This document shows, one piece after another, positions 10,091 to 26,552 of a stretch of DNA of 38,330 nucleotides (its first letter is position 1; every line of letters starts with the position of its first letter). Source of the DNA: Oscillospiraceae bacterium (GTDB lineage: Bacteria > Bacillota > Clostridia > Oscillospirales > Oscillospiraceae); the NCBI GenBank assembly GCA_902775985.1, contig CACYOR010000052.1, positions 1,001 to 39,330 on the forward strand, read 5' to 3'. The position numbers were made by a program, and so were the translations under genes. The notes under the pieces were generated by a model that was given only the letters and a program-made list of their open reading frames with translations, ran no database searches and was not told the origin of the DNA.

Positions 10091-10133
10091 GGTTCTCTCT
10101 CCTTAAAAAACAAAAATAGGCATAACAAATCAC

Positions 10134-10148: not shown

Positions 10149-10155
10149 CAAGTTT

Positions 10156-10184
10156 AGTATACTATACGAAACAGTTTTGTGCAA
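10156..10184 (-). promoter_or_regulatory. Promoter of the oxidoreductase-hypA operon
   Basis: On the minus strand, TTGCAC (10179-10184), 17 nt, TATACT (10156-10161). The leader to the ATG at 10090 is about 60 nt and carries the palindrome at 10134-10148. Confidence 0.82.
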
Positions 10185-10206
10185 GTTATTTCACAAACAA
10201 GAAAAC

Positions 10207-10228
10207 CGGCGCCGTGTAAACGACGCCG
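10207..10228 (-). terminator. Terminator after the metallophosphoesterase gene
   Basis: Stem CGGCG-x-CGT / ACG-x-CGCCG with one internal mismatch and a GTAA loop, followed on the minus strand by GTTTTCTTGTTTG. It closes the operon of the two genes upstream. Confidence 0.65.
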
Positions 10229-10235
10229 ATTCCCA

Positions 10236-12763: not shown

Positions 12764-12811
12764 AGTTCTTACCTCATATACATAGGGTCGTTTTTCTCTC
12801 TTCGGCGCCCT

Positions 12812-12840
12812 ATCTTATCCCAAGTCCGCCGGAATTACAA
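12812..12840 (-). promoter_or_regulatory. Promoter of the BMP-type/phosphoesterase operon
   Basis: On the minus strand, TTGTAA (12835-12840), 17 nt, TAAGAT (12812-12817), about 48 nt before the ATG at 12763. Confidence 0.65.
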
Positions 12841-12971
12841 GCGGTAAAACTATCCCAATTTTATGGGAAAACAGCCCGTTTTTCAAGACCCGGATGGCGA
12901 TTGTACACAAAAAGTCCGGGCACGCCGCGCCGCTCTTCCGCCGGGGAATCCCCGCTGTTTCCCTCCGGTCT

Positions 12972-12999
12972 GCACATTCCCGCTTTGGACGCATAGACT
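12972..12999 (+). promoter_or_regulatory. Possible sporulation (sigma-E/K type) promoter
   Basis: GCACATT (12972-12978), 13 nt, CATAGACT (12992-12999), about 30 nt before the start codon. The match to the mother-cell consensus (ATATT, 13-15 nt, CATACA-T) is partial. No good sigma-A promoter is seen in this gap. Confidence 0.35.
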
Positions 13000-13030
13000 G
13001 TACTGAATGCAATCGCAAGGAGGTAACGCT

Positions 13031-13822
13031 ATGCCTGACAGAACTGCGGCCGGACCCGCCGATCCTGCTGCCCTGATCCGCGAGGCGGTTTCCGTTCATA
13101 CCCGAAAGATCTTTGACAGTTGCCGGGATAAGGACTGCGTGGACGATCTGCGCGTCTTCCCCACCCTCTCCTCCCAGAGCTACATAGACAGCGCCCTGAG
13201 TCTGCGGCCGCGCTCGGCGGAGCTTTTGTACATCGACGTGAGCGTGGAGCCCATCAGCTTCAACCGGGGCTATTACACCGTGGACTGCACCCATTTCTAT
13301 CGCGTCACCGGCGAGACCTTCCCCGGAGGGGACACTCTGCAGGGCCTGGCCATCTTCGAAAAGCGGGTGATGCTCTTCGGCAGTGAGGGCAGCTCCAAGT
13401 GCTTCTCCTCCGAGGATACGCTCCCCCGCCCCGGCGGTGACGAGCTGCCCATCGCGGTGGTCAACTCCGTCGATCCCATCGCCCTGCACATGAAGCTGGT
13501 GGACGCGGACGCGCCGCTCCCGCCCGAGCAGGAACCGCGGCAGATCCCCGATTTTATCGCCGCCGCCTTCCCGGAGGCGCTGGTGCTGAACAACAGCGGC
13601 CGACGCTGGTACGCCACCATCGGCCAGTTCAGCATCATCCGCCTAGAGCGGCCCACCCAGCTGCTTGTCCCGATCTACGACTACGGTCTGCCGGAGAAGG
13701 AATGCCCGGGCAACGCCGAGGGCGATCCCTGCGAGCTCTTCAGCCGCATCCCCTTCCCGGTGGAGGAGTTCTTCCCGCCCGACAGCGTGGACGACACCGA
13801 GGCCTACCGAGATCTTGTATAA
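13031..13822 (+). CDS. Conserved hypothetical protein with CRDKDC motif
   Basis: A 263-residue soluble protein of unknown function. I recall similar proteins only as Clostridia hypotheticals. The N-terminal part has HTRKIFDSCRDKDCVDDLRV at 23-42 with Cys31 and Cys36; further cysteines are Cys86 (TVDCTHFY) and Cys124. The motif suggests a metal site or disulfide. The middle is beta-rich (ELLYIDVSVEPISFNRGYYTVD) with no helix-turn-helix or membrane span. A frame extending to 13007 is rejected because AAGGAGGT ends 5 nt before the ATG at 13031. The gene is monocistronic, diverges from the BMP-type operon, has a possible sporulation promoter upstream and a terminator downstream. Confidence 0.75.
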   Translation: MPDRTAAGPADPAALIREAVSVHTRKIFDSCRDKDCVDDLRVFPTLSSQSYIDSALSLRPRSAELLYIDVSVEPISFNRGYYTVDCTHFYRVTGETFPGGDTLQGLAIFEKRVMLFGSEGSSKCFSSEDTLPRPGGDELPIAVVNSVDPIALHMKLVDADAPLPPEQEPRQIPDFIAAAFPEALVLNNSGRRWYATIGQFSIIRLERPTQLLVPIYDYGLPEKECPGNAEGDPCELFSRIPFPVEEFFPPDSVDDTEAYRDLV

Positions 13823-13825
13823 CTG

Positions 13826-13849
13826 CGGCAAAGCCAAGAGGCTTTGCCG
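13826..13849. other. Hairpin after the CRDKDC gene
   Basis: A perfect 10-bp stem CGGCAAAGCC / GGCTTTGCCG with an AAGA loop begins 3 nt after the stop. It has no T run on the plus strand, so it may protect the 3' end or work with the next hairpin. Confidence 0.55.
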
Positions 13850-13857
13850 AAAAAGGG

Positions 13858-13882
13858 ACTGGACGCCTACAGGGCGTCCAGT
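13858..13882. terminator. Bidirectional terminator between the CRDKDC gene and cobK
   Basis: A stem of 10 bp (13858-13867 with 13873-13882) with a 5-nt loop is followed on the plus strand by TTTTATGTTTATC. On the minus strand it is followed by TCCCTTTTT, so it also ends the cobalamin operon. Confidence 0.85.
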
Positions 13883-13969
13883 TTTATGTTTATCATTTTA
13901 TGTTAATCATTTTATTTCTATCGAGTTACGTATGCTGTTTTATGTTATCTATTTTATGTTAACTATTTC
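13883..13969. repeat. AT-rich word array downstream of cobK
   Basis: In an otherwise GC-rich region, this stretch repeats a short unit. On the minus strand GTTAACATAAAAT, GATAACATAAAAC, GATTAACATAAAA and GATAAACATAAAAC occur in loose tandem, with a GTTACGTA variant between. The 11-mer GATAAACATAA (13884-13894) recurs exactly inside cobC at 22368-22378. It overlaps the last codons of cobK. It belongs to the word family listed at 15237, 22348, 23885 and 25129-25240. Confidence 0.75.
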
Positions 13970-14674
13970 ATCTTTTCCAGGCAGGCCGCCAGCACAGTCT
14001 CAAAGCTCTCGCCCTGATCCTCGGGACGGCGCAGCACGATCATCGGTACGCCCAGGGCCTCCGCTGCCGCCCGCTTTTCCGGAAAGCCGCCCGGCGCTCC
14101 CCCGTCCTTGGTGACCAGCCAGGCGACCTCGTACTGCCGCAGAAGCGCCTCGTTCATTGCCTGGGAAAAAGGCCCCTGCATGGCGCAGATGTTCCGGTGG
14201 GGAATGCCCAGCGCCTCGCAGGCGGACAGGCTCTCGTGACTCGGCAAAATACGGGGGAAGAGCCGCTCCGGCGGCAAGGCCGCCCAGGCAGACAGCTCCT
14301 TGGCCCCGGTGGTCAGCAGGATGTTCCCCGTCCTCTCCGCGAGATAGGCCGCGGCCTCCGCCGCGCTCCCCAGCACCAGTGTCCCCGCCGGGTATTCGCT
14401 CTCCTCCCGGAGCAGGCGCAGTCGGGGCGTCCCGCTCTCCTCGCAGGCTCTGGCGATGGAGGCCGTGACGCGCGCGGCATAGGGATTCCCCCAGACGCGC
14501 CGTCATCTCCTCCACGGGCATGCGCCCGCTGAGCACCGTGACGCCAGGCTGTTCGCCCTGTTCTTCGCTGCCGTAGTCAGTAGCCACGCTGACGGTCACT
14601 TCCGCCCCCGCCGCGGCAAGACGACGGGACAGCTCCCGCCCCTCGGTGGTGCCGCTGAAAATCATCACTCGCAT
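13963..14674 (-). pseudogene. cobK: Cobalt-precorrin-6A reductase, disrupted (deletion with frame change)
   Basis: Would reduce the macrocycle of (cobalt-)precorrin-6A with NAD(P)H; CbiJ in the anaerobic pathway. The N-terminal part runs from the ATG at 14674: MRVMIFSGTTEGRELSRRL, then VSVATDYG and LSGRMPVEEMTARLG. At about 14490 the frame changes. The C-terminal part reads NPYAARVTASIARACEESG, then ILLTTGAKELSAW and LVTKDGGAPGGFPEKRAAAE to the stop at 13963. The expected stretch between the two parts, usually about 12-15 residues ending VVDATHP, is missing. So both a deletion and a frameshift are inferred, next to a run of five Cs (14488-14492). The start overlaps cobJ by 10 nt. It is the last gene of the operon. 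A sequencing error alone would not easily remove the conserved block. Confidence 0.8.
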
Positions 14675-15399
14675 GTCCGATACCCCCGGGGCGTCACCAT
14701 CCGCCCCTTGCAAATGAGCGTGTTGCTGGAGCCGATAAAGACCGTGGTGAACATGTCCGCCTCCGCGTCCCGGAGTTCCGAGAGCGTCAAAATCCGCATG
14801 CTCTCCCCTTCTCGGCCGATCTGCCGGGTCAGGCCGCAGACTGTGTCCCCGCTGCGCGTTTGGAGCAGGATCTCGCAGGCGCGGCGCAGACAGTCTCTCC
14901 GGTGCTGGGAGGCGGGGTTATACAGGCAGATCACAAAATCCCCCTCCGCCGCACAACGGAGCCGCGTTTCGATCCGCTCCCAGGGGGTCAGCAGATCGGA
15001 GAGAGAGATCACGCAGAAATCGTGCCCCAGGGGCGCGCCGAGCAGGGCCGCCCCAGCCAGAGCGGCGGTTACTCCAGGAATTATGTCAACCTCAACATAG
15101 GGGTATTCCGCCGCCAGCTGCAGTGCGGGCCCGGCCATGCCGTAGACGCCCGCGTCACCGCTGCAGACCAGGGCCACGCACCTGCCTTTTTCCGCCTCCG
15201 CCAGGGCATAGCGGCAGCGCTCGATCTCGCCCCGCATATTTGTTATGTAAACTTCTTTGTCCGGATACAGGGGCCGGATCAGCTCGATATAGACCCCGTA
15301 GCCGCAGAGGAGCTCCGCCTCATCCAGCGCTCTGCGCGCCGCGAGGGTCATATCCTCGCCGCCGCCGGGGCCGAGGCCCACCACATAGAGTTTTCCCAT
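14665..15399 (-). CDS. cbiH: Cobalt-precorrin-3 C17-methyltransferase CbiH/CobJ
   Basis: SAM-dependent methyltransferase that methylates C17 and drives ring contraction of cobalt-precorrin-3. The 244-residue product has the family start MGKLYVVGLGPGGGEDMT, the VALVCSGDAGVYGMAG motif, the VDIIPGVTAALAGAALLGAPLGHDFC block split over residues about 100-130, and a C-terminal TTVFIGSSNT motif. Length is normal. There is a 1-nt gap after cbiG and an overlap with cobK. At residues KEVYITN the codons switch to an AT-rich patch (plus-strand 15237-15252), although the protein still aligns with the family without an insertion. Confidence 0.95.
   Translation of the reverse strand: MGKLYVVGLGPGGGEDMTLAARRALDEAELLCGYGVYIELIRPLYPDKEVYITNMRGEIERCRYALAEAEKGRCVALVCSGDAGVYGMAGPALQLAAEYPYVEVDIIPGVTAALAGAALLGAPLGHDFCVISLSDLLTPWERIETRLRCAAEGDFVICLYNPASQHRRDCLRRACEILLQTRSGDTVCGLTRQIGREGESMRILTLSELRDAEADMFTTVFIGSSNTLICKGRMVTPRGYRTCE
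15237..15252 (-). repeat. AT-rich word inside cbiH
   Basis: The minus-strand 16-mer GTTTACATAACAAATA encodes VYITN. The identical 16-mer lies inside cobC at 22348-22363, in the same strand and the same reading frame, encoding the same residues. Flanking codons are GC-rich. Confidence 0.8.
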
Positions 15400-15400
15400 C

Positions 15401-16390
15401 TCACACGCTCCAATCCAGCGCCGGCTCCACCCCGGCCAGGGCCAGAGTCACGCCGTCCCGCGCAAATTTTTTCTCCACGAGCGTCCCGCCGCAGGAGGCA
15501 ACGGCGCTGCGCTCGCAGACATTGTCCACGCCCACGGTCTCACGCACGAAGGCGGAGGCGGAAAAATCCCCCTCCAGAGTCAGCAGTTCCTCCGCCGTGA
15601 AAAAGCGGACAGGCCAGCCATGCCGTGCGCAGAAGGCCAGGAGTCCCGGCTCTTCGGCCTTGCGGTCGAGGGAGGCCGCGGCGGCAATGGCCTCGGGCCG
15701 GATCCCGCGCTCCGCCAGGAAGGCGGAAAAGACCGCCTCGATCTGCTCCGCGCCGATCCCCTTTTTACAGCCGATCCCCAGGGTCAGCACCGGCGGCACC
15801 AGGCAGAGGGCTCCGCTCTCGCGGCGGCGGACATCCACAAGCACATCCGCCTCGCCGCCGATCACCACGCCCGCGGGAGCATCGCCCGCGATGAGCCAGG
15901 CGCTCTCGATGTGCACGGTCTCCCCGGCCAGGAGCTTGGCGGAGACGGTCTTGATCCGCTCCGGCTGCAGCAGGAGCAGGCCCTGCTTTTTCGCCCAGAG
16001 GTCCACGGCAAAGACAGAATGGAGATCCGTGGCCGTGCTGATGACCGCTGTGCCGCCGCAGAGGGCCGCCACTTCCTTCGCCAGGGCGTTGGCGCCGCCC
16101 AGGTGCCCTGAGACCAGCGGGATCACATAGCGTCCCGCCTCGTCCAGGGTGATCACAGCCGGATCCGTGGCCTTGCTCTGCAAAAAGGGCGCCACCGCCC
16201 GCACGGCGATCCCCGTCGCGCCAACAAAGATCAGGGCATCCTTCCGGGGAAAGTTTGCCGCCGTCCAATCGTGCAGGGAGAACTCCGGATCCCCGTGGGC
16301 GGCTGTCAGGCTGCCGCCCAGGGCGCGGCAGAGCTTCTCGGCCAGGGCCGCACCCCGGTCGGTAAAGGCCAGAAAGGCATAGTTGCTCAT
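15401..16390 (-). CDS. cbiG: Cobalt-precorrin-5A hydrolase CbiG
   Basis: Opens the delta-lactone ring of cobalt-precorrin-5A and releases acetaldehyde; a marker of the anaerobic pathway. The 329-residue protein begins MSNYAFLAFTDRGAALAEKL. It has the central GATGIAVRAVAPFLQSKATDPAV and PLVSGHLGGANALA blocks and the CbiG C-terminal domain (LTLGIGCKKGIGAEQIEA, then SAFVRETVGVDNVCERSA). The open frame continues 72 codons upstream, inside cbiD in another frame; the ATG at 16390 is chosen because it overlaps the cbiD stop as ATGA, the pattern used across this operon. Full length, no defect seen. Confidence 0.95.
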   Translation of the reverse strand: MSNYAFLAFTDRGAALAEKLCRALGGSLTAAHGDPEFSLHDWTAANFPRKDALIFVGATGIAVRAVAPFLQSKATDPAVITLDEAGRYVIPLVSGHLGGANALAKEVAALCGGTAVISTATDLHSVFAVDLWAKKQGLLLLQPERIKTVSAKLLAGETVHIESAWLIAGDAPAGVVIGGEADVLVDVRRRESGALCLVPPVLTLGIGCKKGIGAEQIEAVFSAFLAERGIRPEAIAAAASLDRKAEEPGLLAFCARHGWPVRFFTAEELLTLEGDFSASAFVRETVGVDNVCERSAVASCGGTLVEKKFARDGVTLALAGVEPALDWSV

Positions 16391-17511
16391 CGCTTCAAAA
16401 GCTCCTTTGCCCCCTCGGTCATGCCGAGGAAGCCGTATTCGTTGGAAAAGCACAGGGCACCCAGACGGATCTGTCCGCCGGAGCGGCGATCCAGATGCCG
16501 CTGCATGGCGGCCAGCAGACTCTCCATCACCGCATCCCGCAGCCCCGCTCCCTCCAGCAGGGCCAGGCAGCCGTCGCTGCTCACCTGCGCCATCAGCGCA
16601 CGGCACAGCGCCGTATCCGCGCCGCAGAGGGCCGCGTGGGCGCAGAAGAGTTCCATCCGGCAGTCGGCCACCCGGGAGTGGGTGTTCATGATGCCGCCGG
16701 CGAGTTTGACCAGTTTTCCGATGTGCCCCACGATCAGGGCGCGGGAGAAGCCCTCGCTGATGGCCAGGTCGATGGCGTCGCCGAGGAAGTTGGAAAACTT
16801 CACCGCCGGCAGCTTCTCCAGCTCCGGCAGACGGTCCTTCAGATAGTCCGCGCCGTAGTTGCCCGGCGTCAGCAGCAGCATGTCCGCGCCGGAGGCCGCC
16901 GCCTGACGGATGGCCAGGGCGATGGTGTCCAGCAGGGCCTGCTCGCTCATGGGCTCCACGATGCCGGAGGTGCCCAGCACCGAGAGGCCGCCCTCGATGC
17001 CCAGCTGGGGGTTGAAGGTTTGCTTCGCCCGCACCTCGCCCCCGGGAATCGAGATCGTGATCGCAAGGCCCCCGGCATAGCTGTGGGCCGCGCAGACCGC
17101 CTCCACCGCCGCCGTGATCATCCGCCGGGGCACGGAGTTGATGGCCGCCGCGCCCACGGGCTGATCCAGGCCCGGCTTGGTCACCCGGCCCACGCCCTCG
17201 CCGCCGTCGATGCTGATACCCTGGCGCGTCCTTGTCACGCTGGCATAGACCAGCATGCCGTCGGTGACGTCCGGGTCGTCCCCCGCGTCCTTTTTGACGG
17301 CGCAGCGGGCGATCTCTCCGTCGCAGGCGCCGTCCAGCAGCTCCGTCTCCACCCGCCAGCCCTTGGGCGTCAGCAGGGCCATGCTCTCCGGCAGCACTCC
17401 CCCCAGCAGCAGCTCCGCCGCGCCCGAGGCCGCCAGCGCCGCGCAGGTGCCCGTGGTATAACCGCAGCGCAGCTGTCTGCTGCCGCTGCGGATGCTGTGC
17501 TCAAAGCTCAT
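16387..17511 (-). CDS. cbiD: Cobalt-precorrin-5B C1-methyltransferase CbiD
   Basis: Methylates C1 of cobalt-precorrin-5B using SAM; specific to the anaerobic route. The 374-residue product has the family hallmarks LRCGYTTGTCAALAASGA near the N-terminus, GEGVGRVTKPGL near 105, NPQLGIEGGLSVLGTSGIVEP near 165-185 and VGHIGKLVKLAGGIMNTHSR near 262-280. AGGAGAAG precedes the ATG. It overlaps the Cys-rich gene upstream by 11 nt and cbiG downstream by 4 nt. Confidence 0.97.
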   Translation of the reverse strand: MSFEHSIRSGSRQLRCGYTTGTCAALAASGAAELLLGGVLPESMALLTPKGWRVETELLDGACDGEIARCAVKKDAGDDPDVTDGMLVYASVTRTRQGISIDGGEGVGRVTKPGLDQPVGAAAINSVPRRMITAAVEAVCAAHSYAGGLAITISIPGGEVRAKQTFNPQLGIEGGLSVLGTSGIVEPMSEQALLDTIALAIRQAAASGADMLLLTPGNYGADYLKDRLPELEKLPAVKFSNFLGDAIDLAISEGFSRALIVGHIGKLVKLAGGIMNTHSRVADCRMELFCAHAALCGADTALCRALMAQVSSDGCLALLEGAGLRDAVMESLLAAMQRHLDRRSGGQIRLGALCFSNEYGFLGMTEGAKELLKR

Positions 17512-17776
17512 GGTGCTTCTCCTTCTGTCGGGCCAGTTCTTTCAGTTCCGGGAAGCGTTCGAGGATTCGGGCGTAATGCTCCCGCTCATGGGGAAAGGCG
17601 CAGTCGAGGCAGCTCTTGGTGCCGTCGTCCCGATAGACGAAGTTCCCGCCGCAGTTCTCCCCCAAGCAGTAGAGGGGGCAATAGCAGAACAGGCAGTTGA
17701 AGTTCTCCTCCGCCACACCCTTGTGGCAGGGGAAATACTCGCAGTCCCGATGTTGAAAAAAGGCGTAGTTCTTCAT
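17501..17776 (-). CDS. Cysteine-rich small-domain protein of cobalamin operons
   Basis: A 91-residue protein with many cysteines in MKNYAFFQHRDCEYFPCHKG, then NCLFCYCPLYCLGENCGGNF and SCLDCAFPH. This matches what I know as the cysteine-rich small domain (Pfam PF04071), which is often found beside or fused to cobalamin genes. Its role is not established; metal binding is inferred from the cysteine pattern. The start at 17776 overlaps the cbiC stop as ATGA; an ATG three codons upstream is possible but less likely. The C-terminal third is a charged helix (ERFPELKELARQKEKHHEL). Confidence 0.85.
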   Translation of the reverse strand: MKNYAFFQHRDCEYFPCHKGVAEENFNCLFCYCPLYCLGENCGGNFVYRDDGTKSCLDCAFPHEREHYARILERFPELKELARQKEKHHEL

Positions 17777-18441
17777 CCCTGCCACCCCCGCGCCGACGGG
17801 TCCAGCAGATCCGCCGCCGTATAGATCAGTGCGTTGCAGATTGCCGCGGCCACGCTGCTGCCGCCCTTGCGCCCCATGGCCGCGATGGCCGGGACAGCGC
17901 AGCGCTCGCAGACGGCAAAGAGCCGCTCCTTGCTCTCCACCACGTTCACAAAGCCCACTGGCACCGCGATCACCAGTGCGGGCCGAAGCCCGGCCTCGAT
18001 CCGATCGGCCAGGGCAAAGAGGGCCGTCGGCGCGTTGCCGATGGCATAGACCGCCTCCGGGTAATGCTCCGCCGCGTAGGCCATGGAGGCCACAGCCCGG
18101 GTCGTGCCCTGCTCCTTCGCCGCCGCGGCAATGAAATCCTCGGCCATGAAGCAGTGGGCCGCGCCGCCCAGTTTCCGGAGCCCGGCCTTGCTGATCCCGG
18201 CCAGGGCCATGTTGGTATCGGTCACGATGTCCGCGCCGCCGCTCAGGGCCGCCGCGCCCTTTTCCACCGCTTGGGGCGTGAAGCGAAGCGACTGGGCATA
18301 ATCAAAATCCGCCGTGGCGTGGATGACGCGGCAGACCACCGCCTCGGTTTCGGCGGGAAGCGCAATTCTCTTTTCCTCAAGCTCCCGGCGGATGATCGCC
18401 AGGCTGCTGCGCTCGATATCAGCGGGCAGACGGTGCTGCAT
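17773..18441 (-). CDS. cbiC: Cobalt-precorrin-8 methylmutase CbiC
   Basis: Moves the C11 methyl group to C12, making cobyrinic acid. The 222-residue product has the catalytic histidine H41 in CRVIHATADFDYAQ, the GADIVTDTNMALAGI block, IGNAPTALFAL, and VIAVPVGFVNVVESKE near the C-terminus. Of three possible starts, the ATG at 18441 (MQHRLPADIE) is best spaced from GGAGGAG; the ATG at 18447 lies too close to it. The gene overlaps the restored end of cobQ by 23 nt and the Cys-rich gene by 4 nt. Confidence 0.95.
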   Translation of the reverse strand: MQHRLPADIERSSLAIIRRELEEKRIALPAETEAVVCRVIHATADFDYAQSLRFTPQAVEKGAAALSGGADIVTDTNMALAGISKAGLRKLGGAAHCFMAEDFIAAAAKEQGTTRAVASMAYAAEHYPEAVYAIGNAPTALFALADRIEAGLRPALVIAVPVGFVNVVESKERLFAVCERCAVPAIAAMGRKGGSSVAAAICNALIYTAADLLDPSARGWQG

Positions 18442-19884
18442 GTTCATACTCCTCCATGGCACGATAGATGGCATCCATATCCAGGCTTTGCCGCACCGCC
18501 GCGGCCAGCCGGTCGTATTCCCTCTCCCGATAGGCCCGGCGGGGCTCCGGCGTCCAGGCGGCGAGGTTCAGGCCCCTGCGCCCGGCGAGGTATTCCGCCA
18601 GCGCAGCGGTCAATGCCCCGCTGTCGAAAAGGCCGTGGAGATAGCCTCCGTCCCGTCCGCAAAACGGCAAAAGGGCATGCCGCCAAGGCGTTCGGTCTGA
18701 CCCATATGGATCTCATATCCCTCGATGGGCATTCCGGCAAAGGGCGCCGCCTCCACCCTGGCCTTCCGGCGGGTACGGGTCTTGTCACCGGTGAAGACGG
18801 TGCGGCAGGGCAGCAGGCCCAGGCCCCGATAGTCCCCCTGCCGCTCCACGCCGCCGGGATCGGACAGGCTCTCCCCCAGCATCTGATAGCCGCCGCAGAC
18901 GCCGAGGATCGGCGTGCCCTTCGCCGCGAGGGCGAGAATCGCCGCCTCCAGGCCGCTCTGCCGCAGCCACAGGAGATCGTCGATGGTGCTCTTGGTGCCC
19001 GGGAGGATCAGCAGGTCCGGCTGCCCCAGCAGAGCGGGCCGGTCCACATAGCGCAGGCCCAGGTCAGGGTGCTCCTCCAGGGGCGGAAAGTCCGTGAAAT
19101 TGGAGATGTGAGGCAGGCGGATCACCGCCGCGTCCAGGGCCCGTTTCGCCTCGGTCTCGGAGAGGGAGGGCGCCAGGCTGTCCTCCTCGTCGATGTCCAC
19201 CGGCAGCCAGGGCACCACGCCCAGCACCGGCAGACCCGTCAGCGCCTCCAGCTGCCGTAGGCCCGGTTCCAGCAGCGCCACATCGCCGCGGAATTTGTTG
19301 ATCACCGTACCGATGACCCGCCTCCGCTCCTCTGGCTGCAGCAGGGCCACCGTGCCGTAGAGCTGGGCGAAGACGCCGCCCCGGTCGATATCCCCGGCCA
19401 GGAGCACCGGCGCGTCCACCAGCTCGGCCAGGCCCATGTTCACAATGTCGTCGGCGCGGAGGTTGATCTCCGCCGGGGAGCCGGCCCCCTCGATGACCAG
19501 GATATCGTCCTCCGCCGCCAGGCTCTCGTAGGCGGCGAGGATATCGGGGATGAGGCTCTTCTTCATCTTAAAATAGTCCGCTGCGCTGTACTGGCCCCGG
19601 ACACAGCCGTTTACGATCAGCTGGCTGCCCGTGTCGGAGGAGGGCTTGAGCAGGATCGGATTCATGCGCACGTCGCAGTCCCTGCCCGCGGCCTCGGCCT
19701 GGGCCACCTGAGCCCGGCCCATCTCCAGGCCGTCCGGGGTAATGTAGCTGTTGAGAGCCATGTTCTGGCTCTTGAAGGGCGCCACCCGGTAACCGTCCTG
19801 CCGGAAAATGCGGCAGAGGGCCGTGACCAGCAGGCTCTTGCCCGCGCCGGACATGGTGCCTTGCACCATGATGCGTTTAGCCAT
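18419..19884 (-). pseudogene. cobQ: Cobyric acid synthase CobQ, frameshifted by a 5-bp duplication
   Basis: Amidates adenosyl-cobyrinic acid a,c-diamide at four positions with glutamine and ATP. The N-terminal frame (19884 to 18610) gives [17 protein letters not shown] (P-loop), [23 protein letters not shown] and the glutaminase Cys motif [10 protein letters not shown]. After FADGT it ends in a short foreign tail. The true C-terminus ([12 protein letters not shown] through the stop at 18419) continues in another frame. At 18645-18660 the minus strand reads GC-GGACG-GGACG-GAGGC; removing one GGACG unit joins the frames as [12 protein letters not shown], giving about 487 residues, the normal family length. 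This points to tandem slippage: a true mutation, a reversible switch, or less likely a sequence error. The glutaminase histidine region lies after the break, so the truncated form should be inactive. The start overlaps cobD by 8 nt. Confidence 0.9.
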
Positions 19885-20935
19885 TGTGTCTCTCCTTCAG
19901 AGCGCGCAGCAGCGCGTCGTTCTCCTCCGCGGTGCGGATCGCCGTGCGGTACCAGCCCGGGCCGAGGCCGCGGAAATTCCCACAGGCGCGCAGCAGGATC
20001 CCTTTTTCCTTCAGCGCCTCCGCCAAATCCAGATCCTCGCTGTAAAACAGCAAGAAGTTTCCCTCGCCCGGGATCACCCGAAAGCCCAGGCTTTTCAGCG
20101 CCGCCAGCATCCGGGGGCGCTCGGCACGGATCCAATTGGCGCGTCTTGCGGCATAGTCCCGATCGGCCAAGGCCGCCAGGGCCGCCGCCTGAGCCATGGC
20201 CGAGACCGGCCAGGGCTGGGCGTTTTGCCGCAGTTTCTCCGCCAGGGCGGCGCTGCCGCAGAGGGCATAGCCCAGGCGGAAGCCCGCCATGGCATGGCTC
20301 TTGGTGAAGGCCCGCAGCAGGATCAGATGGGGCGCGTCTTCCAGCTCCGGCAGCAGCGTGAAGCGCTCCGGCTCATCCAGGAAATCGAGAAAGCACTCGT
20401 CCAGGATCAGCCAAGTCCCCTGCGCCTCGCAGCGCTCCCAGATCCGCCGCAGCAGCGCCGGCTGAATCGCGCGCCCGGTGGGGTTGTTGGGCTGGCAGAG
20501 GAAGAGCAGATCCACTCTCTCGTCCAGGGCCGTGAGTAGCTCCTCCCCCGGCTCAAAGTCCCGCTCCGGGTCGAGGGGTAAATCATGAATGTCACAGCCC
20601 ACCGCCTCCAGCGCCCGCTCATATTCGGAAAACGAGGGCACAGGCAGCAGCGCCGTCTTGGGCCGGAGGGTCTGACAAATGCGCCAGATCAGTTCCGCCG
20701 CGCCGGTGCCGAAGACGATCCGCTCCACCGGGATATCGTATTCCCGGGCCAGGGCCTCCCGCAGCGTTGTGCAGGCGCTGTCGGGATAGTGCTCCGCCTC
20801 CAAGATGGCGGAAGCGGCTGCCTCCCGCACGCCCCGGGGCAGGCCCAGTGGGCAGAGATTGGCCGAAAAATCCAGCGGCTCTCTGCCGTATCTGTCTTTG
20901 TAGGCGGCCCAGGCGCCGCCGTGTTCTGCATCCAT
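19877..20935 (-). CDS. cobD: L-threonine-O-3-phosphate decarboxylase CobD
   Basis: PLP enzyme that makes (R)-1-amino-2-propanol phosphate, the linker between corrin ring and lower ligand. The 352-residue class I aminotransferase-fold protein starts MDAEHGGAW and has [33 protein letters not shown] (about 147-155), [10 protein letters not shown] with D179, and the PLP lysine K212 in [15 protein letters not shown]. The C-terminal arginine region is GWYRTAIRT. The ribosome site is weak and there is a 5-nt gap after cbiB. It could be mistaken for HisC, but the operon context and the FSANLCPLG start favour CobD. Confidence 0.94.
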
Positions 20936-20940
20936 ATTTC

Positions 20941-21906
20941 TTATCTCAGTAAAAGCAGTCTAATAAGCCCGAATACCAGGAGCCCCGCCATGCTGCCCGC
21001 GTAGAGCAGGCGGCAGGCCCGGCGGATATCTCCCGCGTCGATGGGCTTTTTCTCCTCGCCGATCCAGGCCTTGTCCTGGTATTCCCCGAAATACCAGGCC
21101 GGGCCCAGCAGGCGCAGGCCCAACGCCCCGGCCATGGCGGATTCACACTGGGCGGAATTGGGGCTGGGGTGCTTGCGCCGATCCCGCCGCCAGATGCGCC
21201 AGGCGTTTTTTCCGTCCTCGCCCAAAAGAAAGCTCACGCCGATGAGCAGCAGGGCCCCCAGGCGGGCCGGGAGGAAATTCACCGCGTCGTCCAGCTTCGC
21301 CGCCGCGCGGCCAAAGTGGAGGTAGCGCTCGTTTTTGTAGCCCAGCATGCTGTCCATGGTGTTGACCGCCTTGCAGGCCAGGGCCAGCGGCGCGCCGCCC
21401 AGCATCATGTAAAAGAGAGGAGCAATCACACCGTCGGCAAAATTCTCCGCCACGGTCTCCACCGCGGCCCGGGTCACGCCCGCCTCGTCCAGGCGCGCCG
21501 TATCCCGGCCGACGATGCGGCTCACCGCCGCCCGTGCGGCCTCCAGGCCTTCGTTTTCCAGGGCATGGCAGACCTTCATGCTCTCATCTTTGAGATTCTT
21601 AACGGCCAGCGCCTGCCAGCACCAGATCAGCCGCAGGGCAAAGCCCAGGGGCGCCCACAGGCGATCGAAAAGCACCAGGCTTCCCCAACACAGCAGAAGC
21701 GTCCCCAGCGGCAAAATCGCGGCCAGGAGCCGGCCGGCCCGGCGCTCGCCCTCCGGCGTCCGGGGGAAGCGGGCGCGCAGGCGCTTTTCCAGCGCGCCGA
21801 TGCAGCGGCCCATGAGCACCACCGGATGGATCGGCGTGAGCCAGGCGGGATCGCCCAGGAGCAGATCCAGCAGAAAGCCGCCGAGGGCCGCATACAGGAT
21901 CCTCAT
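20941..21906 (-). CDS. cbiB: Adenosylcobinamide-phosphate synthase CbiB
   Basis: Integral membrane enzyme that joins aminopropanol phosphate to adenosylcobyric acid. The 321-residue product has the family start LLLDLLLGDPAWLTPIHPV (around residues 12-29), MGRCIGALEKRLR, ENFADGVIAPLFYMMLGGAP near 155-175, KAVNTMDSMLGYKNERY, and SAQCESAMAGALGLRL. Several hydrophobic helices, including the C-terminal one, are present. GGAGAG precedes the ATG. It follows cobC by 1 nt and precedes cobD by 5 nt. Confidence 0.95.
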   Translation of the reverse strand: MRILYAALGGFLLDLLLGDPAWLTPIHPVVLMGRCIGALEKRLRARFPRTPEGERRAGRLLAAILPLGTLLLCWGSLVLFDRLWAPLGFALRLIWCWQALAVKNLKDESMKVCHALENEGLEAARAAVSRIVGRDTARLDEAGVTRAAVETVAENFADGVIAPLFYMMLGGAPLALACKAVNTMDSMLGYKNERYLHFGRAAAKLDDAVNFLPARLGALLLIGVSFLLGEDGKNAWRIWRRDRRKHPSPNSAQCESAMAGALGLRLLGPAWYFGEYQDKAWIGEEKKPIDAGDIRRACRLLYAGSMAGLLVFGLIRLLLLR

Positions 21907-21907
21907 C

Positions 21908-22495
21908 TTAGCTCTCCTTTGTGTAGTCCACCGGTCCCAGCACCCGCACGCACGCCGGCCAGTTCGCCGTGTCCAGCCTCCAGCCCGTTCCCGGTGCGCT
22001 GCACCAGGCGTAATACTCGTTTTTCGGCTCGCCCCAACGCTCCAGCACCGCCATCTGGGTCCCGCCGTGGGCCACGATGATCAGTTCCTCCTGCCCCTCG
22101 ACCAGGGCGCGCTCCACCAAAGCCGAGAAAGCGTCACAGACCCGAGCGGAAAACTCCGTACGGCTCTCCCCCTTGGGGCAGCGGCCCCAGCAGCCGCCTT
22201 CCACCCAGGCGCGGTAGTCGGCGTCGTTTTCCATGTCGAGGTAGTTTCGCCCCTCGAAATCGCCGAAATCCATCTCCCGCAGTTCGGGAACTACCCGCTG
22301 CTCCGCCTCCGGGAACAAAATGCCCGCAGTCTCCGCTGTGCGGCATTTATTTGTTATGTAAACAATATTATGTTTATCTTCCGTTGCTTCCAGTCTGTGT
22401 TTTCCTGTTTCGGAGAGGGGCGTGTCCAGCCGTCCCTGATAGCAGCGGCGCTCGCTCAGCTCCGTCGCGCCGTGGCGAATGAGCTCGATGATCAC
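21908..22495 (-). CDS. cobC: Histidine phosphatase, probable alpha-ribazole phosphatase CobC
   Basis: Phosphoglycerate-mutase-type phosphatase expected to dephosphorylate alpha-ribazole phosphate or adenosylcobalamin phosphate. The catalytic motif LIRHGATE is at the N-terminus; ELREMDFGDFEGRNY and the second histidine in IIVAHGGTQMAVL follow. A GTG at 22495 is preferred: AAAGGAG is 7 nt upstream and the start overlaps the previous stop as GTGA. The ATG at 22501 would sit against the ribosome site. The stretch KHNIVYITNK, where family members have about VYVSP, is written in AT-rich codons that include the same 16-mer as cbiH. Length 195 residues. Confidence 0.88.
   Translation of the reverse strand: MIIELIRHGATELSERRCYQGRLDTPLSETGKHRLEATEDKHNIVYITNKCRTAETAGILFPEAEQRVVPELREMDFGDFEGRNYLDMENDADYRAWVEGGCWGRCPKGESRTEFSARVCDAFSALVERALVEGQEELIIVAHGGTQMAVLERWGEPKNEYYAWCSAPGTGWRLDTANWPACVRVLGPVDYTKES
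22348..22378 (-). repeat. Two AT-rich words inside cobC
   Basis: Minus-strand GTTTACATAACAAATA (22348-22363) is identical to the word in cbiH. GATAAACATAA (22368-22378) is identical to a word downstream of cobK. Together they encode HNIVYITNK within a GC-rich gene. Confidence 0.8.
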
Positions 22496-22824
22496 GGCCA
22501 TTCTCCTTTCAGCAGCTCCGGCAGCCCGCAGCAGACCCGGATCACCGTGTCGGCCCGGCGGGCCAGCGCACAGGCCAGGCGGCCCGCCGCCTCCCGTCTC
22601 CGGCGCTCCACGGGATCTATCGGCACCACACCGCCGCCGACCTCGGTGGCGATCACAACGCGATTGGCACTCAGCTCCTCCGCCAGGATCTCCGGCTCAG
22701 CCTCCAGGGCGCGCTCCTGCACGTCCCAGGCGGCGCAGGCGGCAAACTCCTCCTCCGTAAGGCCCAGCAGGCCCCGGATCGTCTCTCTCTTTCCCGCAAA
22801 CAGCGGGCCTGTCACAAAGATCAT
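22492..22824 (-). CDS. Short CobU-like protein
   Basis: A 110-residue relative of CobU. It has a P-loop-like GPLFAGKRE at 6-14, then EVGGGVVPIDPVERRRREAAGR and a C-terminal DTVIRVCCGLPELLKG that matches the end of CobU. The middle section of CobU, including the guanylylated-histidine region RHR, is missing. The P-loop has Arg instead of Ser/Thr after Lys, so kinase activity is doubtful. It may be a regulatory or structural paralogue made by duplication of cobU. GAGGAGAG precedes the ATG, so it looks expressed. It lies between cobS and cobC with a 9-nt gap and a 4-nt overlap. Confidence 0.75.
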   Translation of the reverse strand: MIFVTGPLFAGKRETIRGLLGLTEEEFAACAAWDVQERALEAEPEILAEELSANRVVIATEVGGGVVPIDPVERRRREAAGRLACALARRADTVIRVCCGLPELLKGEWP

Positions 22825-22833
22825 GTTCTCTCC

Positions 22834-23571
22834 TCACAGCAGCAGCGCTGCCAGCATCCAGAGCTCCGCCGTCTGCAAAAACCAGCCGGCCAGATCCCCG
22901 GAGAGTCCCTCAAACTGCCGAACGCACAGACGGTAATAGGCCGCGAAAACCAGCGCCGCCGTCGGCACCGCCGCCCAGGCGCCGCAGAGGATCAGCCCCA
23001 GGGCCAAGCCCAGCGACAGCAGAGCCAGAATTACCCGCACCCGCTTTTGATCCGCCGCCTCGGCAAAGCTGCGGGCCAGACCGCTGCCCGGCGCCAGGGG
23101 AAAGAGCGTCAGCGCCAGCCCGGAGAGGGCGCGGGAGAGGCAGAACAGCAGCACCAGCGGGAGCAGCCTCTCCTCCTGCACGCTCGTCCAGAGGGCAAAG
23201 CTCAGCAGGAAATACAGGCAGAGATGGATCACCGCGAAGGCCCCGGCGTGGGGGTCCTTCAAGATCTCCCGCTTCCGCTCCGGGGCGGCGTGGCTGGACA
23301 GGGCGTCCCAGGTGTCGGCAAAGCCGTCCAGATGGATGCCGCCGGTGATCAGCACCGGAAGCGCACAGAGCACCGCAGCACGTAGGAGCGATGGTATCGC
23401 CAGGAGCAGGCACAGGCGTATCCAAAGCCAGCAGCACAGCCCGATCACCGCGCCGATCAGCGGAAAGGCGCAGAGGCTGTACCTTCTGTTCTCCGCATTC
23501 CAGTCGACCTTAGGCATAGGCAGGGCGGAGAACAGGGAAAACGCCACGACGATGGTCTCAAAGATTCTCAT
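22834..23571 (-). CDS. cobS: Adenosylcobinamide-GDP ribazoletransferase CobS
   Basis: Membrane enzyme that joins adenosylcobinamide-GDP to alpha-ribazole or its phosphate. The 245-residue protein has the typical start FSLFSALPMPKVDWN, the FPLIGAVIGL block, and the metal-binding GGIHLDGFADTWDAL near residues 77-91, followed by several membrane helices. The start overlaps cobU by 14 nt. Confidence 0.95.
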   Translation of the reverse strand: MRIFETIVVAFSLFSALPMPKVDWNAENRRYSLCAFPLIGAVIGLCCWLWIRLCLLLAIPSLLRAAVLCALPVLITGGIHLDGFADTWDALSSHAAPERKREILKDPHAGAFAVIHLCLYFLLSFALWTSVQEERLLPLVLLFCLSRALSGLALTLFPLAPGSGLARSFAEAADQKRVRVILALLSLGLALGLILCGAWAAVPTAALVFAAYYRLCVRQFEGLSGDLAGWFLQTAELWMLAALLL

Positions 23572-24079
23572 GTCTCTCCCCTTTCAACACATGCTCCAGG
23601 CCGCAGACCAGCTCCACCACCCGGTCAGCCCGGGCGGCCAGCTCTCGGTTCAGCGCGGCCAGCTCCCGCAGGAAATGGAGCGTATCCCCTTCGTAGTCAC
23701 TGCCGCCGGAAAAGACCTCATTTGTCACCACGGTCAGATTGGCGCAGCGCTCCAACAGATGCTCGATCCCGGGCAGGATCGCCTCCGCTCCCCCCCCCTC
23801 CGGGCCGTAGAGCTCATTGGCCAGGAGGTTCGAGAGATCCTCCAGCAGCAGGCTCCCGCCGCGTGGGATCTCCGCCTCATTTAAGTTTACATAACATTCT
23901 ATTGTCTCAAAGCCTTTATCGGCCCGCTGCTCCCGATGGCGGGCGATGCGCGCCTCGCACTCCGCGTCAAAGGGCTGCATCGTGGCCAAATATATACGCG
24001 GGCCGGGTTGGGCCTGCACCAGCGCCTCGGCATAACGGCTCTTCCCACTGGCGGAGCCGCCGATCACAAGGGTAAACAT
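23558..24079 (-). CDS. cobU: Adenosylcobinamide kinase / guanylyltransferase CobU
   Basis: Bifunctional enzyme that phosphorylates and then guanylylates adenosylcobinamide. The 173-residue product has the P-loop GGSASGKS at 7-14, IYLATMQPFD, the RIARHREQR stretch with the nucleotide-carrying histidine, LLLEDLSNLLANEL, and VTNEVFSGGSDYEGDT. The ECYVNLNEAE segment is encoded by an AT-rich patch at 23880-23900. GAGGAGAG precedes the ATG; there is a 9-nt gap after cobT and a 14-nt overlap with cobS. Confidence 0.95.
   Translation of the reverse strand: MFTLVIGGSASGKSRYAEALVQAQPGPRIYLATMQPFDAECEARIARHREQRADKGFETIECYVNLNEAEIPRGGSLLLEDLSNLLANELYGPEGGGAEAILPGIEHLLERCANLTVVTNEVFSGGSDYEGDTLHFLRELAALNRELAARADRVVELVCGLEHVLKGERHENL
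23885..23896 (+). repeat. AT-rich word inside cobU
   Basis: GTTTACATAACA on the plus strand, so inverted relative to the copies in cbiH and cobC. It encodes CYVN on the minus strand. It is a 12-of-12 match to the core of those words. Confidence 0.7.
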
Positions 24080-24088
24080 GCTCTCTCC

Positions 24089-25150
24089 TCACTGGGGCCG
24101 ATAGGCCTCGATGCCCAGGCGGGCAAAGCTCTGGCCGCTCTGATAAACCGCGAGGGCCATGTCCAGCAGCGGCATGGCCGCCACTGCGCCGCTCCCCTCG
24201 CCCAGGCGCATCCCGGCACTGATCAGGGGTTTGAGGCCCAAGTCCCGCAGCAGCAGCGCGCCCGCCGGTTCCGCCGAGACATGGCTGGCCAGCAGGAAGG
24301 TCTTCGCCGCCGGGCAGAGCCGCAGGGCGCAGAGGGCCGCCGCCGCGCTGATAAAACCATCGATCAGCACCGGCCTCCGGCTGGCCGCCGCGCCTAAGTA
24401 AGCGCCGCACATCCCGGCGATGTCCAGCCCGCCGAGCTTTGCGAGCACATCCAAAACGTCCTCCGCGTCGGGTCGATTCCGCTCGATCGCCGTCCGGATC
24501 GCCGCTTTTTTCCGTTCCAGCCCCGCATCGGAGAGCCCGGCTCCCCGGCCGGTCAGTTCATCCGGATCGCGGTGGAGCAGCACCGCCGCCACAGCCGCGG
24601 CCGTGGTGGTGTTGCCGATGCCCATCTCCCCGACAGCCAGCAGGCGATCCCCGGCCGCCGCCCGGTCCCGGGCCAGCTCCGCTCCGGCCAGAATGGCCGC
24701 GAGACACTCCTCCCGGCTCATGGCCGGGCCAAGGGTCATATCGGCCGTGCCGTTTCGGACGCGCCGGGAGAGGACCCCGGGCGTTGAGGGAAAATCGATA
24801 ACGCCCATGTCCACAGGCAGCACCCGGCAATCCGCCAGCGCCGCCATGGGGCTGACCGTGCTGCGGCCCTCGGCCAGAGCCCGGGTCACCGCGGCGGTAA
24901 CGCCGCTCCCGCACTGGGTCACCCCCTGGGCCACCACGCCATTATCGGCGCAGAACACCAGCAGGCTCCGGGGCTTAAGCGCGATCTCCGCCGTGCCTGT
25001 CACCCCCGCGATACGCACCAGCGTCTCTTCCAGGGTGCCCAGACTGCCCAGGGGCTTGGCGATGCCGTCCCAAATCTGCCGGGATTCCCGCATGGCTTTG
25101 GAGTCTGCCTCCGGGATTTCCTCAATTAGTTTACATAATTTGTTTTCCAT
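24089..25150 (-). CDS. cobT: Nicotinate-nucleotide-dimethylbenzimidazole phosphoribosyltransferase CobT
   Basis: Activates the lower-ligand base by forming alpha-ribazole phosphate from NaMN. The 353-residue protein has IAKPLGSLGTLEETLVRIAG, VFCADNGVVAQGV, the GEMGIGNTTTAAAV block, DGFISAAAALCAL and the catalytic-glutamate motif LGEGSGAVAAMPLLD. The first codons (MENKLCKLIEE) lie in an AT-rich patch. The start is 4 nt after the cbiA stop, and no Shine-Dalgarno sequence is visible in the AT-rich run before it, unlike every neighbour. Translation may depend on coupling to cbiA. Which base is used cannot be read here. Confidence 0.94.
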   Translation of the reverse strand: MENKLCKLIEEIPEADSKAMRESRQIWDGIAKPLGSLGTLEETLVRIAGVTGTAEIALKPRSLLVFCADNGVVAQGVTQCGSGVTAAVTRALAEGRSTVSPMAALADCRVLPVDMGVIDFPSTPGVLSRRVRNGTADMTLGPAMSREECLAAILAGAELARDRAAAGDRLLAVGEMGIGNTTTAAAVAAVLLHRDPDELTGRGAGLSDAGLERKKAAIRTAIERNRPDAEDVLDVLAKLGGLDIAGMCGAYLGAAASRRPVLIDGFISAAAALCALRLCPAAKTFLLASHVSAEPAGALLLRDLGLKPLISAGMRLGEGSGAVAAMPLLDMALAVYQSGQSFARLGIEAYRPQ

Positions 25151-25240
25151 AATTTCATTTACGTAAAATCGTAAACGTAACTTTATTTACGTAATTTTGT
25201 AATCCGTATTTTAGTTTACGTAATATTGTTGCACGTTTTA
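25129..25240. repeat. AT-rich word array at the cbiA-cobT junction
   Basis: This stretch holds GTTTACATAA (25129-25138), TTTACGTAAA (25158-25167), TTTACGTAA (25186-25194) and GTTTACGTAA (25214-25223), plus inverted GTAAACGTAA at 25171-25180. The core TTACGTAA is palindromic. It covers the first codons of cobT and the last ~27 codons of cbiA, both otherwise GC-rich. Confidence 0.8.
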
Positions 25241-26552
25241 TGCATGTGCTGACAAAGCGCTCCGCCAGCCCGGTGTTGCCCCCGAAGGGCAGATGCGGGA
25301 AACCGGCGTAGAGGCTATCGGTAGCCACACAGCAGGGCCAGGAACGTCCGTCGGGCTTGCGGCTCAGGAGATCGGTGCCGTTTTCCGTGCAATCCCAATG
25401 GTGGAACTCATGAATGGGCACCCGCTCCCCCACGCGAAAGAGCATGGAGTTCTCTTCCGCCTCCAGAAAGCTGTAGCCGAAACGCTGCAGCCGCGGCGTC
25501 CGATAGCCCTCCCCGGGCAGCACGCCGCACATGGGCCAGCCGTGGCCGTCCTCATCCTCCAGGGATTGCTGCAGATAGAGGAAGCCGCCGCACTCCGCCA
25601 CGGTGGGCAGGCCCCGTCTCACCGCCGCGGCGATGCTCTCGCGCATCTTGATATTGTTGCTGAGCTCTCTGGCATGGAGCTCCGGATAGCCTCCGGGCAG
25701 ATAGAGCCCGGCGACTCTCGCCGGCAAGGCCGAATCGGTCAGCGGGCTGAAAAAGACCAGCTCCGCCCCGGCGCGCTCCAGACTCTCCAGAGTGTCGGCA
25801 TAGCAGAAGCAGAAGGCCGCGTCCCGGGCCACCGCCATACGGCAGCGCTTTTCAGGTTGTTCAGGGGCTTCCTCGCCCTCATCCTCGGCGGCGAGCGCCA
25901 GCAGTGCGTCCAGTTCCACCGTCTGCTCCAACTGCAGAGCCAGGGCCTGAAAGCGCTCCTGCAGATCGCTGATCTCCTCCGCGGTCAGCAGACCCAGGTG
26001 GCGGCTGGGCAGTTCCGCCTCCTCCCGGTGGGGCAGCCAACCCAGCACCGGCAAGCCGGTCTCCCGCTCCAAGAGCGGTTTCAAGTAGGTATACGTGCTC
26101 TCGCTGCAATCGTTGAGCAGCAGAGCCGTCAGCATGCTCTTCTCCCGGAAGCTCTGCAGGCCCCGGATCTGGGCGGCCAGGGTCAGAGCGCTGCCCTTCG
26201 GCCGCAGGATCAGCACCGCCGGGGTCTCGGTCCTCCGGGCCAGATCCCAGGCGCTGGCCTCCTCCGTGCCGTTCAGTCCGTCGTAATAGCCCATGGCCCC
26301 TTCCAGCACGGCGATCTCGCCGCCATGCTGCCGGAGGCTGCGGCGCACGCTCTCCTCTCCCTGGAGGAAGAGATCCAGATTCCGGCTCGGGACGCCCAGG
26401 ACCCGGCTGTGAAACATGGGGTCGATGTAGTCCGGCCCGGCTTTGAAGGCCCGGACCTCCATCCCCCGCTTTTTCAGGGCCGCCAGCAGTGCGCAGCAGA
26501 CCACGGTTTTCCCCTGGCCGCTGCCCATGGCGGTTAACAGTATTTTCTTCAT
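25155..26552 (-). CDS. cbiA: Cobyrinate a,c-diamide synthase CbiA
   Basis: ATP- and glutamine-dependent amidation of the a and c side chains of cobyrinic acid. The 465-residue product has the P-loop-like GSGQGKT at 10-16, FKAGPDYIDPMFH at 36-48, GAMGYYDGLNG, the LYLPGGYPELHA glutaminase block and the nucleophile C321 in VAECGGFLYL. The late histidine motif is HEFHHWD. The conserved end is about FVSTCIK; the remaining ~27 residues (KRATILRKLKYG onward) are encoded by the AT-rich word array and look like an added tail. The start overlaps cbiET by 4 nt. Confidence 0.95.
   Translation of the reverse strand: MKKILLTAMGSGQGKTVVCCALLAALKKRGMEVRAFKAGPDYIDPMFHSRVLGVPSRNLDLFLQGEESVRRSLRQHGGEIAVLEGAMGYYDGLNGTEEASAWDLARRTETPAVLILRPKGSALTLAAQIRGLQSFREKSMLTALLLNDCSESTYTYLKPLLERETGLPVLGWLPHREEAELPSRHLGLLTAEEISDLQERFQALALQLEQTVELDALLALAAEDEGEEAPEQPEKRCRMAVARDAAFCFCYADTLESLERAGAELVFFSPLTDSALPARVAGLYLPGGYPELHARELSNNIKMRESIAAAVRRGLPTVAECGGFLYLQQSLEDEDGHGWPMCGVLPGEGYRTPRLQRFGYSFLEAEENSMLFRVGERVPIHEFHHWDCTENGTDLLSRKPDGRSWPCCVATDSLYAGFPHLPFGGNTGLAERFVSTCIKRATILRKLKYGLQNYVNKVTFTILRK

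What the first reader, a model, noticed from the sequence alone, without database searches (positions are those of the whole stretch)
13883..25240. A family of AT-rich DNA words embedded in the coding sequence of the cobalamin operon
GTTTACATAACAAATA occurs identically, in the same strand and frame, in cbiH (15237-15252) and cobC (22348-22363). Its 12-bp core is inverted in cobU (23885-23896). GTTTACATAA or GTTTACGTAA recurs at the cobT start and cbiA end (25129-25240). GATAAACATAA in cobC (22368-22378) recurs after cobK (13884-13894), where four variants form a loose array. The host genes are strongly GC-rich, and the proteins still align with their families, so the DNA word, not the peptide, seems to be what is repeated. 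By eye no GTTTACRTAA occurs elsewhere in the window. Possible roles: binding sites for a nucleoid or regulatory protein spread along a long operon, transcription pause or RNA-processing sites, or traces of a micro-repeat that spreads by gene conversion. All of these are inference.
Basis: partly seen in the sequence, partly recalled or inferred. Interest (0 to 1): 0.72.

Follow-up and report, generated by a model that had tools for sequence, protein, structure and literature searches.

The report
XerD-type DNA words in 14-bp arrays
The AT-rich words scattered through this vitamin B12 operon are copies of a ten-letter DNA site that related gut bacteria often keep upstream of their xerD recombinase gene, and that in this genus is also strung along the chromosome in regular 14-letter arrays, probably for the XerD protein to bind.

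Summary
The words are real. On the other strand they read TTATGTAAAC, a member of TTAYGTHAAY (10 in the window, all between 13.9 and 25.3 kb; reversed control 0). They are units of head-to-tail arrays of period 14 (13882-13968, 25126-25224, a pair in cobC). Close pairs occur in 31 of 41 genus genomes (own included), 43 of 78 at spacing 14, with one control hit. Adjacent units share linkers hardly more than units of different arrays, so slippage or a spreading micro-repeat is unlikely. Intergenic arrays are mostly nearest a gene's 3' end (30 of 35) in either orientation: a DNA-level site, not an RNA signal. Outside the genus the exact pair is in 110 of 232 genomes, 104 of them once; 18 of 19 regions examined have it 0.7-1.7 kb upstream of xerD. 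In the genus the xerD upstream region carries the word (72 words in 29 loci, control 0). The word equals the classical XerD half-site of dif. Best reading: XerD-binding sites, autoregulatory at xerD and dispersed elsewhere. Against it: the dif-like arms found here differ from the word, and words do not gather around dif. Binding and function are inferred.

The parts
13882..13968 (+). array A: six units of period 14 (TTATGTTTAT, TTATGTTAAT, TTATTTCTAT, TTACGTATGC, TTATGTTATC, TTATGTTAAC) between convergent gene ends, after a hairpin read from the sequence by eye
15081..15090 (+). single word TTATGTCAAC, antisense inside cbiH
15237..15252 (+). word TATTTGTTATGTAAAC, antisense inside cbiH; replaces the conserved T[PG]M
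22348..22377 (+). TATTTGTTATGTAAAC plus a second unit TTATGTTTAT 14 bp on, antisense inside cobC; replaces the conserved S-P
23885..23894 (-). word TTATGTAAAC, sense inside cobU; kept at the same codons in L068 and L072
25126..25224 (-). array B: seven units of period 14 across the 3' end of cbiA and the start of cobT; its last unit (25129) begins at cobT residue 5, as does the word in congener G031 (L244)
14665..15399 (-). cbiH (precorrin-3B C17-methyltransferase)
   Evidence: TIGR01466 above cutoff
21908..22501 (-). cobC-like alpha-ribazole phosphatase
   Evidence: TIGR03162 below cutoff
23558..24079 (-). cobU
   Evidence: NF004469 below cutoff
24089..25150 (-). cobT
   Evidence: TIGR03160 above cutoff
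25155..26552 (-). cbiA/cobB
   Evidence: TIGR00379 and NF002204 above cutoff

Best explanation
The words are binding sites for a sequence-specific DNA-binding protein, most likely the tyrosine recombinase XerD. Each unit TTATGTHAAY is the classical right-hand (XerD) half-site of dif. A dif site is 28 bp, two half-sites and a shared centre, so one recombinase accounts for 14 bp, and head-to-tail units at exactly 14 bp would let XerD monomers pack side by side. In about half of the family genomes searched the exact pair is present, and in 18 of 19 regions examined it sits upstream of xerD, so bound XerD could control its own synthesis. In this genus (and in genus g66) further arrays and single units lie elsewhere on the chromosome, mostly just past stop codons and sometimes inside genes such as the cob operon. 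There XerD could act as an orientation-independent roadblock, or, as reported for B. subtilis, remove SMC complexes. Shown: the motif, its spacing, its positions, its conservation upstream of xerD, and that linkers do not look like recent duplications. Inferred: that the binder is XerD, that it represses its own operon, and what the dispersed arrays do.
For: Spacing: of 78 close direct pairs in 41 genus genomes (own included), 43 are 14 bp apart, 12 are 28 and 6 are 42 (counted by hand), against 1 control hit. Family: the exact 14-bp pair is in 118 of 249 genomes (36 of 60 genera), with 0 control hits. By my count of that table, 110 of 232 genomes outside the genus have it, 104 once and 6 two or three times. 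In 18 of 19 ten-kb regions holding it, xerD begins 0.7-1.7 kb away, always in the opposite orientation to the word (P0001 and the own XerD are TIGR02225 above cutoff). Own genus: 72 words TTATGT[ACT]AA[CTG] against 0 controls in up to 900 bp upstream of xerD, in 29 of the 30 loci; 25 of 29 have an inverted pair 60-110 bp apart. In the own genome, words at G000:C36:9793, 9913 and 9992 precede xerD. Word equals XerD arm: TTATGTAAAC and TTATGTTAAC right arms are printed in PMC2731167 (passages). The suggested Frankia dif ends TTATGTCAAGT in PMC3025954 (passages). 11-bp half-sites and the right-arm preference of B. subtilis RipX (XerD) are in PMC5357621 (passages). Linkers: adjacent units 0.392, same array non-adjacent 0.411, between arrays 0.360 identity. 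Placement: 30 of 35 intergenic arrays are nearest a 3' end, 1 of 35 is divergent, orientation 11 to 10. Selection on DNA: the cobU word is kept in L068 and L072. The cbiB word is at the same residue (72) in L236, L237 and L240, the antisense cbiET word at residue 345 in the same three, and the cobT word at residue 5 in L244 and the window (window coordinates). A pair lies inside larC-like genes of G006, G035 and G039 (LarC models above cutoff for the G006 protein). An identical 24-bp pair recurs in G022, G027, G031 and G036, inside truA where it was read (L202).
Against: The dif-like site of the genus has right arms TTATGCGAACT, TTATGCGAGAT and others: 9 of 11 identical to the word at best, but only 7 of 11 in the own genome. 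In two other genera the candidate dif arms are TTTTGTTTACT and TTTTGTTGAGT. Arms change while the word stays, so its reader may not be XerD. Outside the genus 122 of 232 genomes lack the exact pair (mismatches not tried). Words do not gather near dif: on the 192-kb dif contig of G012 only the xerD upstream words and three singles were found in the 180 kb read, while C41 had 9 in 13 kb. In 0.30 Mb and 0.26 Mb around the skew switch of G093 and G174 they are scarce apart from the pair upstream of xerD, though in each of these two genomes one search found only that one pair, so they are a weak test. One of the 19 regions (L288) has no xerD in 10 kb, and 8 of the 30 shorter loci showed none within about 1.5 kb. 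The closest cob relative, L067, lacks the cobU word, and the peptide YVNL also occurs with other codons (L128). No strain with known XerD occupancy was examined. Nothing explains why the cob operon is a hot spot.
Confidence: 0.55

Rival explanations
1. The unit is the operator of another, unidentified transcription factor that controls the spoIIM/proC-xerD operon, and the dispersed arrays are further sites or decoys of that factor.
For: The unit is conserved upstream of xerD while dif-like arms drift; one array lies 25 bp upstream of recA in G012.
Against: Outside xerD, arrays avoid promoters (30 of 35 nearest a 3' end, 1 of 35 divergent) and the genes beside or under them show no theme by eye (cob, larC, truA, recA). 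The match to the XerD half-site and to 14 bp, half of a dif, would be coincidence.
Confidence: 0.28
2. XerD sites of the B. subtilis terminus kind: they mark the terminus region and unload SMC there; the cob operon would lie near the terminus.
For: Same half-site. xerD lies about 7-12 kb from dif in 9 of the 10 genomes where both were on one contig (G000, G010, G012, G013, G015, G018, G019, G030, G040).
Against: Words are not concentrated around dif in G012 or in the 60 kb read of the G018 dif contig, nor around the skew switch in G093 or G174. G033 has xerD about 99 kb from dif. The place of the window relative to dif is unknown. The B. subtilis site sequences were not seen (paper not held).
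Confidence: 0.08
3. A micro-repeat that spreads or expands (slippage, gene conversion, tiny mobile element).
For: Tandem arrangement; an identical 16-mer in cbiH and cobC; arrays A and B have no full counterpart in the congener cob regions examined.
Against: Linkers of neighbours are hardly more alike than those of strangers; replacement without indel in cbiH and cobC; words at aligned positions in diverged species.
Confidence: 0.05
4. Chance AT-rich patches.
For: Some single genome copies look like plain codons by eye.
Against: Reversed-pattern controls with the same composition: 26 against 1, 78 against 1, pairs in 118 genomes against 0, 72 against 0.
Confidence: 0.01

Closest known systems
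XerD (RipX) right half-site of dif
   Same: TTATGTAAAC/TTATGTTAAC core; 11-bp arm in a 28-bp site
   Different: Here single arms or head-to-tail arrays with no XerC arm; the dif-like arms found in this family differ
B. subtilis XerD unloading of SMC at the terminus (Karaboja 2021; paper not held, known from citing passages)
   Same: XerD acting at chromosomal sites
   Different: Not clustered at dif here; arrays of period 14; upstream of xerD itself
XerS/difSL and XerH/difH single-recombinase modules (PMC5357621 and PMC9765430, passages)
   Same: A dif-like palindrome immediately upstream of one recombinase gene
   Different: The recombinase here is XerC-like, below the XerC, XerD and XerS cutoffs; 6-bp centre rather than the 11 of difSL; XerD is also present
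REP/BIME elements and DNA uptake sequences (recalled)
   Same: Short dispersed words, 3'-end bias, intrusion into genes
   Different: Tens per genome, not hundreds or thousands; not palindromic; 14-bp lattice; often a single pair at xerD in other genera

Membership tests
XerD half-site | matches the TTATGT[ATC]AA right arm of published dif sites | tested here: met
XerD half-site | matches the XerD arm of the organism's own dif | tested here: not met
   own arm TTATGCGAGAT, 7 of 11
XerD half-site | bound by XerD | not testable with these tools
   needs EMSA or ChIP
dif | two inverted 11-bp arms around a 6-bp centre, single copy | tested here: not met
   window arrays are direct repeats; the dif-like site is elsewhere, G000:C36:20802
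SMC-unloading XerD sites | concentrated around the terminus | tested here: not met
   a part of each genome was read
SMC-unloading XerD sites | SMC removal at the sites | not testable with these tools
   needs ChIP or Hi-C
Cobalamin operon operator or riboswitch | confined to cob promoters, or an Rfam match | tested here: not met
   arrays lie at 3' ends and inside genes on other contigs and in other species; no Rfam match at gathering score in the window
Slippage minisatellite | adjacent copies more alike than distant ones | tested here: not met
DNA uptake sequence | hundreds to thousands of copies per genome (recalled) | tested here: not met
   26 exact copies in G000; 24 to 64 TTATGTWAAC in four congeners

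The most novel reading that the evidence does not exclude
In this Oscillospirales-like family chromosome-dimer resolution has passed to a single XerC-like recombinase encoded beside a near-palindromic dif, and XerD, set free from dif, has become a sequence-specific chromosomal binder that regulates its own operon and coats 14-bp head-to-tail arrays near gene ends, a new kind of architectural lattice made from recombinase half-sites.
Probability: 0.3. Interest if true: 0.82.

Novelty: new variant of a known kind. Interest (0 to 1): 0.62.

Why it matters
A DNA word noticed by eye turns out to tie a widespread recombinase gene to a regular, chromosome-scale set of sites in little-studied gut bacteria. 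It also exposes a dif-like site next to a lone recombinase that the canonical Firmicutes pattern missed in all 41 genus genomes.

Tried and rejected
Canonical Firmicutes dif pattern (recalled) in the genus: 0 of 41; a looser pattern led to the dif-like site. Clustering of words around dif or the skew switch: not seen in the stretches read. Complete Lachnospiraceae chromosome (L103, C. asparagiforme): 24 words against 16 controls, no evident cluster. Rfam in the window: no match at gathering score. RNA-level signal: rejected, no strand bias. dif by profile in G093 and G174: no strong hit; a palindrome scan gave one perfect site each near the skew switch, and a second perfect one in G093 far from it (1,211,883). 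Literature: among the papers listed (15 of 1,208; 15 of 18; 10 of 7,538; 10 of 22) no title or abstract start deals with XerD controlling its own gene or with XerD half-site arrays; they were not read whole. Array detection and gene calling were simple scripts, so the 41 arrays and their contexts are approximate (array B, for one, was scored as intergenic). Arrays were collected from loci that the searches returned (at most 30 per search), not from every hit.
Full report
What was checked. GTTTACRTAA occurs five times in the window at the stated places and nowhere else; shuffles give none. The shared 16-mer of cbiH and cobC has no other copy within three mismatches. Read on the other strand, the word is TTATGTAAAC. 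With the wider form TTAYGTHAAY the window has ten copies, all between 13898 and 25223, and no copy of the reversed control.

What the words are. The patches at 13882-13968 and 25126-25224 are head-to-tail arrays of period 14, with about six and seven units, and the cobC word has a second unit exactly 14 bp on. The window belongs to G000, a 2.83-Mb assembly in 212 contigs; the nearest named relatives by CobT are unclassified Oscillospiraceae assemblies. The genome holds 26 TTATGTAAAC against one reversed control, and more arrays at C2:41258, C63:4357, C69:3582 and C74:6239.

Genus. In 41 genomes (own included) a pattern that allows spacings of 12 to 42 bp found 78 pairs in 31 genomes, and one in the control. 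Counted by hand from that list, 43 pairs have spacing 14, 12 have 28 and 6 have 42; the other 17 include nine at 20-22. In 41 distinct arrays drawn from the loci returned (136 units), the core is strongly conserved and the four-base linkers are not. Linkers of neighbours (39% identical) resemble each other no more than those of the same array further apart (41%), and barely more than those of different arrays (36%). The arrays therefore do not look like recent tandem duplications; the core and its spacing look selected.

Where they lie. Of 35 intergenic arrays 30 are nearest a gene's 3' end and one is divergent; the same loci give 22 divergent among 109 intergenic spaces. Beside co-directional genes the unit points with the genes 11 times and against them 10 times. 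The signal therefore seems to act as DNA. Six arrays were scored inside genes, among them larC-like genes of three species and truA.

Inside genes. In cbiH the word turns a residue that is P, G or A in all 55 homologues into N, and in cobC it turns a P (54 of 62) into N, without an indel. The cobU word is kept codon for codon in L068 and L072, whose loci are 63-65% GC; L067 lacks it. Congeners G027, G036 and G022 have words at the same residue of cbiB and, antisense, of cbiET; G027 and G036 also share cbiP and cobD words; G031 has one at cobT residue 5, as here. Of the ten congener cob regions examined, four (L236, L237, L240, L244) have words and six have none, among them L243, which held only cobT. 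The cob region is a hot spot: 4 where 0.13 are expected in G000, 6 where 0.40 in G027 (two of them 4 kb outside the cob genes), 5 where 0.31 in G036 (chosen after the fact, and G027 and G036 share positions).

The xerD link. In 249 family genomes (own included, the others at least 95% complete) the exact 14-bp pair occurs in 118, with no control hit. By my count of the table, 110 of 232 genomes outside the genus have it, 104 of them once; 122 have none. Twenty regions of 10 kb were chosen and fetched; 19 contain the pair, and in 18 of these xerD starts 0.7-1.7 kb away in the opposite orientation. The gene between was tested in two: a SpoIIM match just under Pfam's cutoff in L276 and a pyrroline-5-carboxylate reductase in L284. 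Of the 30 shorter loci 22 show xerD within reach; four of the other eight come from genus g66, in which three of the genomes searched have three pairs each. In the own genus single words surround the xerD promoter region: 72 words in 29 of 30 loci, none for the control, and in 25 of 29 an inverted pair 60-110 bp apart. G040 and G015 have upstream words too; G010 showed none in the 1.9 kb held.

dif. The genus has a 28-bp near-palindrome of 11-6-11 layout, for example ATCTCGCTAAA TTTATA TTATGCGAGAT at G000:C36:20802. Of the 18 genomes with a hit, 17 have it within about 170 bp upstream of the same XerC-like recombinase gene (77-100% identical to the own copy; one is partial). The G038 hit has no such gene, and a second G016 hit is an array. 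That protein scores below the cutoffs for XerC, XerD and XerS. In G093 and G174 a perfect 11-bp palindrome of different sequence lies some 20-35 bp upstream of a relative of this gene (about 50% identical), at 2,059,568 and 1,667,624, near the GC-skew switch. This resembles the XerS/difSL layout described in PMC5357621 (passages). In one search at most one protein per genome passed E 1e-40 with a XerD query, which hints that no canonical XerC is present; this was not tested directly.

Reading. The unit is the classical XerD arm, it is conserved upstream of xerD, and its 14-bp period equals half of a 28-bp dif, so XerD is the best candidate. The chief objection is that the dif-like arms vary and differ from the unit, which a different reader of the motif would also explain. 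Words are not clustered at dif or the skew switch in the stretches read, so simple membership among SMC-unloading terminus sites is not supported. What the dispersed arrays do, and why the cob operon carries several, remains open.

Noticed in passing
G000:C36:20802-20829 (L213:7803) and loci L150-L179: Single-copy dif-like palindrome directly upstream of an XerC-like 332-aa recombinase; xerD lies about 10 kb away. Looks like a single-recombinase dif module; no description was found in the one search made for it (listing).
   Followed up: partly
G093:C1:2059568 and G174:C1:1667624 (L297, L323): Perfect 11-6-11 palindromes of other sequence within CTCCA...TGGAGG beside a relative of the same recombinase gene, near the GC-skew switch; candidate dif of other genera.
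   Followed up: partly
L384 (G012:C41) 4452-17374 and L398 (G018:C64) 8969-18329: Hot regions with 9 and 7 words in about 13 and 9 kb; the G012 one includes a four-unit array 25 bp upstream of recA.
   Followed up: partly
L251-L253 (genus g66: G230, G259, G181): A second genus with three 14-bp pairs per genome in three of the genomes searched.
   Followed up: no
G034:C151, G021:C66, G019:C23 and C30, G017:C37, G029:C78, G016:C181: Pairs of the same word spaced 20-21 bp, about two helical turns, instead of 14.
   Followed up: no
G022:C111:22438, G027:C19:69911, G031:C88:4567 (L202), G036:C39:24522: The identical 24-mer TTATGTTAACAGAATTACGTAAAT occurs in four congeners; in L202 it lies in truA (the others were not read).
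   Followed up: partly
window 25155-25230: The CbiA C-terminus reads through array B and ends 5-22 residues beyond the 25 homologues listed (on the window's numbering).
   Followed up: partly
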